Shown in pieces: positions 25,909-60,191 of a stretch of 64,000 nucleotides of DNA. A program made the position numbers and the translations under genes. Position 1 is the stretch's first letter. Each line of letters starts with the position of its first letter. A model generated the notes under the pieces. That model had not been told where the DNA came from and ran no database searches. It was given only the letters and a program-made list of their open reading frames with translations. This stretch comes from Corynebacterium aurimucosum (GTDB taxonomy: Bacteria; Actinomycetota; Actinomycetes; Mycobacteriales; Mycobacteriaceae), in NCBI RefSeq assembly GCF_030408555.1, contig NZ_CP047048.1, positions 2,294,001 through 2,358,000 on the forward strand, given 5' to 3'.

Positions 25909-26268
25909 GTGCCACCAAAGGTCACAGATACTCAGCCCGCCGCTGATCAGACTCATGCAGTAGAGGAAGAGACCGCCCGCGCCGCGCGTCGCGTCGTCGC
26001 CACCTATGCGGAGGATTTCCTCGACGGCGTGACCCTCATGTCGATGCTGGGCGTCGAACCAGAAGGCTTAGTCCACCGCAAGGTTTTGGCTGAGCAAGCC
26101 GATGCCGCTCCGAAGAAGAGCAGCAAGAAGGCAACCAAGAAGGCCTCCAAGAAGTCCACCAAGAAGACGACAAAGAAGGCTACGAAGAAAGCCACCAAGA
26201 AGGCCACTAAGAAGTCGAGCAAAAAAGCTACCAAGAAGGCAACTAAAAAGGCCACGAAGAAGGCCTAG
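25909..26268 (+). CDS. Small protein with lysine-rich histone-H1-like tail
   Basis: I do not recognise the N-terminal domain (about 1-65, acidic then amphipathic, TARAARRVVATYAEDFLDGVTLMSMLGVE). Residues 69-119 are 13 tandem KKxx units, mostly KKAT, KKSS or KKST, the same kind of tail as in bacterial H1-like proteins and mycobacterial HU. Binding to DNA, RNA or polyphosphate is therefore inferred. AGGAGG stands 5 bases before the GTG start, so expression is probably strong. It sits 50 bases after thrE and 2 bases before otsA, suggesting cotranscription. The 12-base repeat in DNA could vary in length between strains. Confidence 0.75.
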   Translation: MPPKVTDTQPAADQTHAVEEETARAARRVVATYAEDFLDGVTLMSMLGVEPEGLVHRKVLAEQADAAPKKSSKKATKKASKKSTKKTTKKATKKATKKATKKSSKKATKKATKKATKKA

Positions 26269-56503: not shown

Positions 56504-57448
56504 TTAAGGGATCGTTTCCATGTTGCGGGACGTGATGACCACGACGCTGCCACCGCTGTCCAAGCTGCAGCCCAACAAACGGTTTTCTGGGGTATCCTCC
56601 CACAGTTTCGGCGCACCGTAAGCACAGTGCCCCAGGTCCGTGGTGAGGTGGCCACGGTTTCCGCCCTCGCCAGCCTGCCAGTCATGGTTAGCGTATTCAT
56701 CCAGCAATTCCATGGCGTCATTGCAATTCGTGCCGTCCTCTTGCACGTAGACCAAACCGGTGTCTTCACCACGCGTACCGCTTTCACCGCACACCGTTCC
56801 GGTGTTGGCGATGCCATTCGCATCTGGCTTCGCTGGGAAGGTATCGGAGTAGTACTGGCCATCGTCCTTGACGGTGAAGTGGTGCCCGTTCGCCTTGACC
56901 ACAAACTCGTTGCCACTGAGTGCTTCAAAGGTTCCACCGTCAAAGCTCACGGTCTCGCCCTCGTTGAGCGTTGCAACTTCGGTCGGTGTATAGAACTCAA
57001 TGGCCCACACCGGGAAGAAGCCGCGGTCGCCGAGGTAGCTCACCGCGTTTGACCTCCAGCTCTGCATGACCGGCCCCGGATAAATTGGCGGATCGGCAAA
57101 TTCGACCTTGCAGTTCGGGGCATCGGCCTCTTCGTGGATGAGGCAGAGGACGCGCCCATCCGGGCTCTTGACCGCTGGGATGGGGTTCGGAATCGTCGCT
57201 AGGTTGCCACCCGCCATAAAGTCCTGCGGATCGCGTTCCTTCAGGCCGCCGGGTTTGTCTTTATCGGGCTTGGCGCTGCTCGACGCCGCGGCCTCGGTAG
57301 AGCTACTGGAGGCAGATTCAGAACTGGCGGAGCTGGCTGAGTTCTGTTGAAACTGTGGCTCATCGCCCGCCGGCTCGCTCGTCGAAGAACACGAAGCCGC
57401 GGCGCAGGCCATGAGGGAGGCAGAAAGGATAGAGAGAAGCTTCTTCAT
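56504..57448 (-). CDS. Lipoprotein, tandem paralogue 1
   Basis: The 314-residue product has a lipoprotein signal MKKLLSILSASLMACAAASC (cysteine 20), a Ser/Ala/Glu-rich linker and an exported domain. That domain has SPDGRVLCLIHE, PPIYPG, GxGFFP and FTVKDDGQYYSDTFPAKPD, then GTVCGE, DGTNCNDAMELLDEYANHDW and a late cysteine pair. The same order is seen in the gene upstream at 57483, so they are duplicates. No family name is recognised; similar secreted proteins occur in corynebacteria. ATG 57448 aligns with the ATG of the paralogue. Confidence 0.75.
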   Translation of the reverse strand: MKKLLSILSASLMACAAASCSSTSEPAGDEPQFQQNSASSASSESASSSSTEAAASSSAKPDKDKPGGLKERDPQDFMAGGNLATIPNPIPAVKSPDGRVLCLIHEEADAPNCKVEFADPPIYPGPVMQSWRSNAVSYLGDRGFFPVWAIEFYTPTEVATLNEGETVSFDGGTFEALSGNEFVVKANGHHFTVKDDGQYYSDTFPAKPDANGIANTGTVCGESGTRGEDTGLVYVQEDGTNCNDAMELLDEYANHDWQAGEGGNRGHLTTDLGHCAYGAPKLWEDTPENRLLGCSLDSGGSVVVITSRNMETIP

Positions 57449-57482: not shown

Positions 57483-58441
57483 CTAGTTTTCCGAGTGTTT
57501 CGGGTCTTCGGGGTGTGCAGCGTCAAGAAGAATAACGCGACCGATACCGGATAAATCTTCGCAATGAATCCGACGTGCATACGGATTAGGTGTCTCAACG
57601 AATTCCGGTTCTCTGTGAGAGCACTTCCAGCCGTCAAGCTCCAGGATTCCCCGGGTGTTCACTTCTTTTATGTCCCACTCGTAGTTGACGTACTTGTCCA
57701 CGATCTCCATTGCAGTCGTGCAATTCGTACCGTCTGTCTGCACAAAGACTTTCTGGCGTCCAAAATTGGTGTCGGTCTCGCCGCAGACAGTACCCACGGG
57801 CGCATAGCCATTGGTGTCCGGCTTCAGCGGATAAGTATCCGCCGAAAACTGGCCGCCGTCCTTCACTGTGAAATGGTGGTCTTGGACCTGAACCGTGAAT
57901 TCATCCGCACTGGGGGCTTCAAAAATCACGCCGTTGATATCGACTTTCTCGCCTTCCTCCAGCTGCTGTGAAGGAACCTGGTCCCCGGCATCCACCACGC
58001 CCTTGGGGAAGAAACCGGCACCTTCTATATAGCTGACCATGTTTGCTTCCCATTGCGGGTTCTCGGGGTCAGGCAGGATGGGCGGGTTTTCAAAGCCAAC
58101 GAAGCACCACGGCCCTTGAGAGCCCTCATGCAGAGAACACGACACCCTGCCGTCCGGGCTCCTCACTCCCCAGGCCACCGTGGTCTCATACCTGAACCCA
58201 GTGGCGCGGAAGTCCTCGGCATCGCGTTCTTTGAGGCCCGAAGGTTGAGAGCCAAACCCCGGCTCGCGATCTGTGGAATCGCTTTCTTCGGCGCTATCAG
58301 AGCTTTGCGCACTGCTTTGAGAACCCGAGGACTCCACAACTTCGAATCGATGAGTTTCCTGGGTTCCTTCATCAGAAGAACACGCAACCAAGCCAGCCGT
58401 TACAAGCGGCAGTGTGAGAAGAGAGAGAGTAGCTTTTTCAT
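57483..58441 (-). pseudogene. Lipoprotein, tandem paralogue 2, start out of frame across a (CT)5 tract
   Basis: The body encodes a lipoprotein with TLPLVTAGLVACSSD (lipobox) and an exported domain matching the next gene: SPDGRVSCSLHE, PPILPD, GAGFFP, FTVKDGGQFSADTYPLKPD, GTVCGE and DGTNCTTAMEIVDKY. The natural start ATG at 58441 encodes MKKLLSL as in the paralogue, but that frame runs off within a (CT)5 tract at 58420-58429. Removing one CT unit restores MKKLLSLLTLPLVTAGLVAC. The body frame has no good start of its own; an ORF start at 58532 gives a non-signal extension. It is either phase-variable (off), recently broken or a sequencing error. Confidence 0.75.
58420..58429 (-). repeat. (CT)5 dinucleotide tract inside the lipoprotein signal sequence
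   Basis: On the minus strand the tract reads CTCTCTCTCT, beginning 12 bases after the ATG at 58441. Four units would put the MKKLL start in frame with the lipoprotein; the five units present do not. The length is modest for slippage, but the position is exactly that of a contingency repeat. Confidence 0.8.
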
Positions 58442-58523
58442 GCTTTGTATTGTTCCACGCAGGCAGGCCTCTCGCTGAGTGATGTGTGCTGCGGCGACAA
58501 ACTGAAAGCACCGCCAAAACACG

Positions 58524-58616: not shown

Positions 58617-60191
58617 CTACTTCTCCGGCTTCACGATTGGGAAGAGCACGGTCTCACGGATTCCTAGGCCGGTCAGAGCCATAAGCAGGCGGTCCATGCC
58701 CATACCAGCGCCCGCTGTCGGCGGCATGCCCTGCTCCATGGCGGCGAGGAAGTCCTCATCCAAAACCATGGCTTCTTCATCGCCGCCAGCAGCCAAGCGG
58801 GCCTGGTCCTCGAAGCGCTCACGCTGGATTACGGGATCCACCAGCTCCGAGTAGCCGGTGGCCAGCTCGAAGCCGCGCACGTAAAGGTCCCACTTCTCCG
58901 TCACGCCTGGCTGCGAGCGGTGCTGACGGGTCAGCGGGGAGGTCTCAACCGGGAAGTTCTTCACAAAGATTGGGCCCTCAAGCTGGTCCTCGCAGAGCAC
59001 CTCCCAGATCTCCTCCACCAGTTTGCCGTGGCCCCAGCCGCCGTTCTTCGGGACGTCGAGCCCGATGACGTCAGCAATCGCCTTGAGCTCCTCGACGGTG
59101 GAGTCGATGGTGACCTCCGGCTGGCCGGGGAACTTGCGCTGCAGAGCCTCGTTGAGGGAGGGGTACATTTCAATCTCCGGCCACTCTTCGCCACCGAAGT
59201 CATACTCAGTACCATCAGCCAAGGTGACGGTGGTGGAACCGAAGACCGCGCGGGCCACAGACTGGATGGACTCGCGGATAGTGCGGGCACAGTCGTTGTA
59301 GTCACCCCACGCCTCGTAGGTCTCCAGCATGGCAAACTCCGGGGAGTGGGAGCGGTCAACGCCCTCGTTACGGAAGTTGCGGTTGATCTCAAAGACGCGG
59401 TCGATGCCGCCGACCACAGCGCGCTTCAGGAAGAGCTCCGGAGCGATGCGCAGGTAGAGGTCAATGTCCAGGGCATTGGAGTGGGTCACGAACGGGCGGG
59501 CCGCCGCACCACCGTGGAGGGTCTGCAACATCGGGGTTTCGATCTCCACGAAGCCCTCATCTTCCAGGTAGTTGCGCAGCGCACGCATGACCTTCACGCG
59601 GGTCATGGCATTCTTGCGGGCCTCCTCGCGCACGATGAGGTCGTTGTAGCGCTGGCGCACGCGAGTTTCCTCGTTCATGTCCGCGAAGGAAACCGGAAGC
59701 GGGCGCAGGGACTTCGCCGCCATGGTCCACGTGGAGGCCATAACGGAGAGCTCGCCACGGCGCGAGGAAATGACGCGACCCCGCACGGAGATGAAATCAC
59801 CCAGGTCAACGTCAGACTTCCACGCGGCGAGGCGCTCCTCCCCTACCTCTGCCAGCGACAGCATGGCCTGCACTTGGGTGCCATCGCCATCTTGCAAGGT
59901 GGCAAAGCAAAGCTTGCCGGTATTGCGCATGAAGATAAGGCGGCCGGCGATGGCTACCTCGACGTCAGTCTCCTCACCCGCGCTGAGGTAGGTGACGCCC
60001 TCTTCCGCGGCCGGCTCTTCGCCCTCGGCAACGACCTGGAACTGCTGGCGGAGATCCCGCAAGGAGATCGTGCGGTCTACGGTCACCGGATAGGGCTCGG
60101 TGCCGGACTCCAACAGTCGGGCGCGCTTCTCGCGGCGAATGCGCAGCTGCTCGGGGACGTCAGTAACTTCAGTATTCTTCTTCTCGCTCAC
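58617..60191 (-). CDS. lysS: Lysyl-tRNA synthetase (class II)
   Basis: This class II synthetase of 524 residues charges tRNA-Lys. It has an N-terminal OB-fold anticodon domain ([26 protein letters not shown], about 78-105), motif 2 [26 protein letters not shown] and motif 3 [13 protein letters not shown]. There is no fused membrane domain, so it is the ordinary enzyme. The start is GTG 60191 with TACCCT 8 bases upstream, consistent with a leaderless mRNA. The gene is divergent from phoX. Confidence 0.95.

What the first reader, a model, noticed from the sequence alone, without database searches (positions are those of the whole stretch)
58405..58445. Lipoprotein start out of frame by one CT unit: candidate phase-variable surface antigen
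The ATG at 58441 encodes MKKLLSL and aligns base for base with the start region of the tandem paralogue at 57448 (shared CGTGGnAC upstream and CTCTCT after the start). A (CT)5 tract at 58420-58429 then puts the signal peptide out of frame with an otherwise intact lipoprotein. Four CT units would give MKKLLSLLTLPLVTAGLVAC, a perfect lipoprotein signal. This is the layout of a slipped-strand contingency locus, rarely reported in corynebacteria. A recent null mutation or read error would look the same.
Basis: seen in the sequence. Interest (0 to 1): 0.75.

Follow-up and report, generated by a model that had tools for sequence, protein, structure and literature searches.

The report
Lipoprotein gene frameshifted by repeat slippage
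A small surface-protein gene in a Corynebacterium genome is out of frame because a short CT repeat in its secretion signal has one unit more than in its nearest named relative; this looks like an ordinary slippage mutation, and a reversible on/off switch is possible but not supported.

Summary
On the minus strand the ATG at 58441 reads 13 codons and stops at 58400. A (CT)5 tract (58420-58429) separates it from an intact 299-residue body frame starting at the lipobox cysteine (58382). Relatives use the homologous start in frame: P0001 (2 differences in 299 residues), C. aurimucosum DE0410 (four CT units) and 17 further family genes (1-4 units). The window allele is thus a derived frameshift, most simply by slippage; no alternative start looks good.
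Phase variation is only partly supported. Five dinucleotide units lie below published cut-offs (at least 8, or 6 for detection, PMC5953494); relatives keep no long tract; Leu-Ser signal-peptide codons explain it, and other (CT)5 tracts in the genus fall in such segments too. In favour: it is the genome's only CTCTCTCTCT, a near-identical in-frame protein exists, and the genome has NucS, reported not to repair small indels, and no MutS match. Most likely: a recent null allele that rarely reverts. Reads and other strains could not be examined. A much stronger repeat, (CT)12, was met in a prophage of a related genome.

The parts
58400..58441 (-). Short ORF from the family's conserved ATG: 13 codons, then TAA
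   Evidence: homologous start in frame in 18 of 18 other family genes read
58420..58429 (-). (CT)5 tract inside the signal-peptide coding region
   Evidence: only copy of CTCTCTCTCT in the genome; four units in C. aurimucosum DE0410 (L004/L034)
57483..58382 (-). Intact lipoprotein body frame (299 aa from the lipobox Cys, plus stop), 2 residues different from P0001
   Evidence: dN 0.074 / dS 0.385 against L034
56504..57448 (-). Tandem paralogue, intact 314-aa lipoprotein of the same family
   Evidence: 41% identical to P0001
58524..58569 (-). Strong hairpin after lysS (possible terminator); GTG 58532, the first start of the body frame's long ORF, lies inside it
   Evidence: fold of the stretch 58576-58507, -41.1 kcal/mol
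58617..60191 (-). lysS (lysyl-tRNA synthetase), upstream co-directional gene; name recalled from its sequence, no call gave it
   Evidence: ORF of 524 aa

Best explanation
The gene is a member of a Corynebacterium family of lipoproteins of unknown function. In this isolate replication slippage in a short CT run, which exists because the signal peptide is written with Leu-Ser codons (CTC TCT), added one unit. Translation from the true ATG now ends after 13 codons, so neither signal peptide nor lipoprotein is made: a recent null (OFF) allele. Shown: frame break, tract, intact body, in-frame relatives. Inferred: that slippage made it, that it is real in the strain, and that reversal, though possible in principle, is rare because the tract is short.
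For: Frame and tract. In-frame homologous start in 18 of 18 other family genes read at DNA level, with 1-4 CT units, and in 32 of 35 database proteins. P0001 differs from the window body at 2 of 299 residues, so the break is young. Purifying selection on the body against L034, dN/dS about 0.19. The genome has 14 (CT)4 tracts besides this one, so a single (CT)5 is no outlier. (CT)5 occurs in other N-terminal segments by codon choice (at least L069, L084, L085 among 47 tracts read in the genus), and in L069's orthologues the tract is not kept (0 of 5 others). MutS_V profile without a match and NucS_C present in the genome; NucS is reported unable to correct indels (PMC8228993 and PMC11551767, passages).
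Against: An in-frame near-identical protein and an out-of-frame allele together are also what phase variation predicts. The (CT)5 is the only one in the genome and sits exactly where a switch would. PMC8228993 also credits DnaE proofreading with possibly removing nearly all short indels, so slippage need not be frequent in such genomes. No reads were seen, so the extra unit could be an assembly error. P0001's source is hidden and its DNA was not seen, so its species and tract are inferred.
Confidence: 0.66

Rival explanations
1. True phase-variable lipoprotein: unit gain and loss in the CT tract switches synthesis on and off in a population.
For: Tract position directly after the start, one unit from frame; near-identical in-frame protein P0001; only (CT)5 of the genome; no MutS match and reported NucS inability on indels. 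PMC5953494 notes that dinucleotide tracts do switch genes in several Gram-negative organisms. Two database proteins from contigs of 5.5-5.8 kb begin at an internal Met (P0007, P0019), which could be further broken alleles or contig-edge effects.
Against: Five units against a cut-off of at least 8 in PMC5953494, whose authors saw no length change in the dinucleotide tracts of Neisseria. Relatives keep no long tract (1-4 units). Listings of four paper searches on corynebacterial phase variation (7 of 7, 4 of 4, 15 of 54 and 20 of 145 papers listed), judged by title and abstract start, showed no such case; the rest was not seen.
Confidence: 0.13
2. Sequencing or assembly error: the isolate has an in-frame tract and an ordinary functional gene.
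For: P0001 and the 18 relatives read are in frame; a repeat tract is where indel errors fall. The plasmid of this genome appears under two species labels (FDAARGOS_1109 and FDAARGOS_1111), so sample handling may not have been flawless.
Against: A whole-unit two-base gain in a ten-base tract is an unusual error type (general knowledge); the genome is held in two contigs at 100% completeness and the rest of the gene is open.
Confidence: 0.15
3. The gene is expressed from another start in the body frame (GTG 58532, TTG 58517 or GTG 58511), giving a lipoprotein with a long N-terminal extension.
For: The frame is open upstream to GTG 58532.
Against: GTG 58532 lies inside the post-lysS hairpin; the upstream stretch differs by indels between the window, L034 and L033, so it is not a conserved coding sequence; none of 35 family proteins has this extension (two, P0032 and P0033, have a different one of 16 residues, and four have 3 extra residues).
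Confidence: 0.04

Closest known systems
Translational phase variation by simple sequence repeats (contingency loci), e.g. AG-repeat mod gene of Mycoplasma mycoides (PMC3498834, passages)
   Same: Dinucleotide run in the coding region, out of frame, stop soon after the tract
   Different: 12 and 10 units there against 5 here; there two clones of different state were found, here one assembly; its authors too call phase variation not yet fully demonstrated
Cutibacterium acnes adhesin genes PPA2127 and PPA1880 (PMC3224659, passages)
   Same: Skin actinobacterium, exported proteins, repeat tract at the 5' end (PPA2127) or in the promoter (PPA1880)
   Different: Homopolymers; tract lengths were compared between strains there (11, 13 and 15 nt for PPA1880)
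Homopolymer-tract phase variants of Mycobacterium tuberculosis (e.g. PMC6667613, PMC11898584; listing and abstract starts only)
   Same: Actinobacteria, indels in tracts
   Different: Homopolymers; described there as common or frequently arising variants

Membership tests
SSR-mediated translational phase variation | Repeat tract in the 5' coding region with a unit that is not a multiple of 3 | tested here: met
SSR-mediated translational phase variation | Tract length in the hypermutable range (dinucleotide at least 8 units, or 6 for detection, PMC5953494) | tested here: not met
   five units; cut-offs, set for Neisseria, not for actinobacteria
SSR-mediated translational phase variation | Long tract retained in orthologues | tested here: not met
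   1-4 units in 18 other family genes
SSR-mediated translational phase variation | Unit number differs between isolates of the species | tested here: inconclusive
   P0001 (99%, in frame, 2 of 299 body residues different) implies an in-frame allele, but its DNA and species were not seen
SSR-mediated translational phase variation | Reversible switching within a clone | not testable with these tools
   needs reads or colonies
Bacterial lipoprotein | N-terminal signal peptide ending in a lipobox Cys in frame with the start | tested here: not met
   not in frame in the window; in frame in 18 of 18 relatives read at DNA level. The gene is thus a broken member of a lipoprotein family; lipidation itself was not tested
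A named Pfam or NCBIfam family | Profile match above the curated cut-off | tested here: not met
   no match for the window body in either library up to E 1. For the paralogue two NCBIfam matches below their cut-offs (13.6 against 24 and 11.1 against 100 bits). Among the 16 members of A1, P0001 none; New_glue in 8 of 16 (best E 0.0019) and Big_3 in 1, cut-offs not printed

The most novel reading that the evidence does not exclude
A slipped-strand on/off switch of a corynebacterial surface lipoprotein that works with an unusually short dinucleotide tract, because actinobacteria of this kind lack MutS and their NucS is reported not to correct small indels, so that tracts far below the thresholds used for Gram-negative bacteria are already variable.
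Probability: 0.12. Interest if true: 0.62.

Novelty: new member of a known kind. Interest (0 to 1): 0.24.

Why it matters
If real and reversible it would be a repeat-switched surface protein in Corynebacterium, for which the listings of four searches showed no case (the last two listed 15 of 54 and 20 of 145 papers), and it would lower the repeat length thought sufficient for switching in genomes without MutS. If not, it is one strain-level null allele of a lipoprotein of unknown function, useful mainly as a warning that signal-peptide Leu-Ser codons create CT tracts by themselves.

Tried and rejected

Rows dropped: of 49 distinct tracts of (CT)5 or more, the window's own and one at a contig end (G154) were not fetched, so 47 were examined; three of the 47 (L064, L065, L071) show the same sequence around the tract. 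The ORFs there were called mechanically. The script lists only genes whose start is in frame; against I checked by eye that all 17 other matches with E up to 1.8e-42 are among its 18 rows (the 18th is the distant L022). Weaker matches (L017-L021, L023-L032 and those without a locus) were not counted: low identity, and most begin inside the protein.

Full report
What is there. The finding lies on the minus strand. The ATG at 58441 opens 13 codons and ends at TAA 58402-58400; ten bases of the signal-peptide code, 58420-58429, are (CT)5; the frame that carries the lipobox and the body is a different one and is open from 58382 to 57486, 299 residues. Downstream, the tandem paralogue (56504-57448) is intact and its start region aligns base for base. 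Upstream lies an ORF that I recognise as lysS, followed by a strong hairpin (58569-58524; the surrounding 70 bases fold at -41.1 kcal/mol).

Is the frame break real against relatives? A protein search with the body frame found 28 proteins and a profile search 34, 35 distinct in all. 32 of 35 carry the family's start with the signal peptide (six of them have 3 or 16 residues before it, and P0028 lacks the C-terminal part); three begin inside (P0007, P0019, P0031; the last comes from a 924-base contig). The closest, P0001, differs at 2 of 299 body residues and starts in frame. Its cluster stands for 45 sequences; its source is not shown, so its species is inferred from similarity. At DNA level, a search of 242 genus genomes gave 38 with a match. 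I read the start of 18 other family genes, the window's own paralogue included: 17 are all the other matches with E up to 1.8e-42, one is distant. 18 of 18 are in frame (17 ATG, one GTG), with longest CT runs of 1 to 4 units against 5 in the window. The nearest relative with a name, C. aurimucosum DE0410 (L004/L034, 87% at protein level), differs at five of the 60 bases before the start, and from the start to the cysteine only by having one CT unit fewer. The body is under purifying selection between the species (dN 0.074, dS 0.385).

Is the tract unusual? The genome holds CTCTCTCTCT once, at this place, and 14 further (CT)4 tracts. In the genus 44 of 242 genomes have at least one (CT)5. I read 47 of the 48 other tracts: by mechanical ORF calls, at least three fall in frame in hydrophobic N-terminal segments (L069, L084, L085), one lies about 25 bases before the start of a lipoprotein-like ORF (L075), and the others mostly lie deeper in ORFs, opposite ORFs or between them. 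In L069, which I recognise as a PhnD-like lipoprotein (no call names it), 0 of 5 orthologues keep the tract although they keep most of the residues. So such tracts arise from Leu-Ser codon choice and come and go.

Mechanism. The genome has no match to the MutS_V profile, which rings in 11 of 14 control genomes, and carries NucS_C. NucS is reported not to correct short indels, from mutation accumulation in M. smegmatis (PMC8228993, passages) and a recombineering test in the same species (PMC11551767, passages). The first review also suggests that DnaE proofreading removes nearly all short indels, which speaks against general hypermutability. Slippage by one unit is the natural origin of the allele. 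Whether it reverts often enough to be a switch is not shown. PMC5953494 (passages) takes at least 8 dinucleotide units as indicative of phase variability (6 for detection) and saw no change in the dinucleotide tracts of Neisseria, while noting that such tracts do switch genes in other Gram-negative organisms; five units is short. A dinucleotide case that I read about has 12 and 10 AG units (M. mycoides, PMC3498834, passages).

Alternatives. Translation from an upstream start in the body frame is unlikely: GTG 58532 is inside the hairpin, TTG 58517 and GTG 58511 follow it, the upstream DNA differs by indels from L034 and L033, and none of the 35 proteins has this extension. An assembly error cannot be excluded. 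The plasmid of this genome matches NZ_CP068167.1 (C. aurimucosum FDAARGOS_1109) and also NZ_CP068163.1, labelled C. glucuronolyticum FDAARGOS_1111.

The protein. No Pfam or NCBIfam match for the window body. Seven cysteines are invariant in the 32-sequence alignment, the lipobox one included. The model has pLDDT 76.8, with a low-confidence stretch of about 45 residues after the lipobox and a mainly beta body; the best structural matches, TolB, are too weak to use. Function is open; an envelope binding protein is a guess.

Verdict. Observation confirmed; interpretation partly supported: a slippage frameshift, most likely a young null allele, with phase variation possible at about one in eight.

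Noticed in passing
L041:2516-2539 (G115:C1:2268015-2268038) and L089:1474-1483: A related genome (G115) has a (CT)12 tract in a prophage gene between a tail-fibre gene (phrog_18185) and an endolysin (phrog_880), and a C10 run near the end of a similar gene elsewhere in the same genome. Both exceed the cut-offs of PMC5953494 and are better phase-variation candidates than the finding. An IMG/VR record identical over 5,001 bases also has 12 units.
   Followed up: partly
G000:C2 (20,681-bp plasmid): The same plasmid is deposited under two species names, C. aurimucosum FDAARGOS_1109 and C. glucuronolyticum FDAARGOS_1111: mislabel, shared plasmid or sample mix-up.
   Followed up: no
P0007 and P0019 (database proteins): Two family proteins from contigs of 5.8 and 5.6 kb begin at an internal Met; could be further broken alleles or contig-edge calls.
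   Followed up: partly
G074:C19:35230-36215 (L096, L101): The PhnD-like lipoprotein gene (name recalled) appears as two overlapping pieces in different frames, so it looks frameshifted in this genome.
   Followed up: no
L069:1998-2007 (G155): (CT)5 in frame inside the signal peptide of a PhnD-like lipoprotein; not kept in any of 5 orthologues.
   Followed up: yes
window 26113-26265: 12-base tandem repeat, 12.8 copies at 74% matches, that could code Lys-Lys-Ala-Thr repeats; frame not checked.
   Followed up: no
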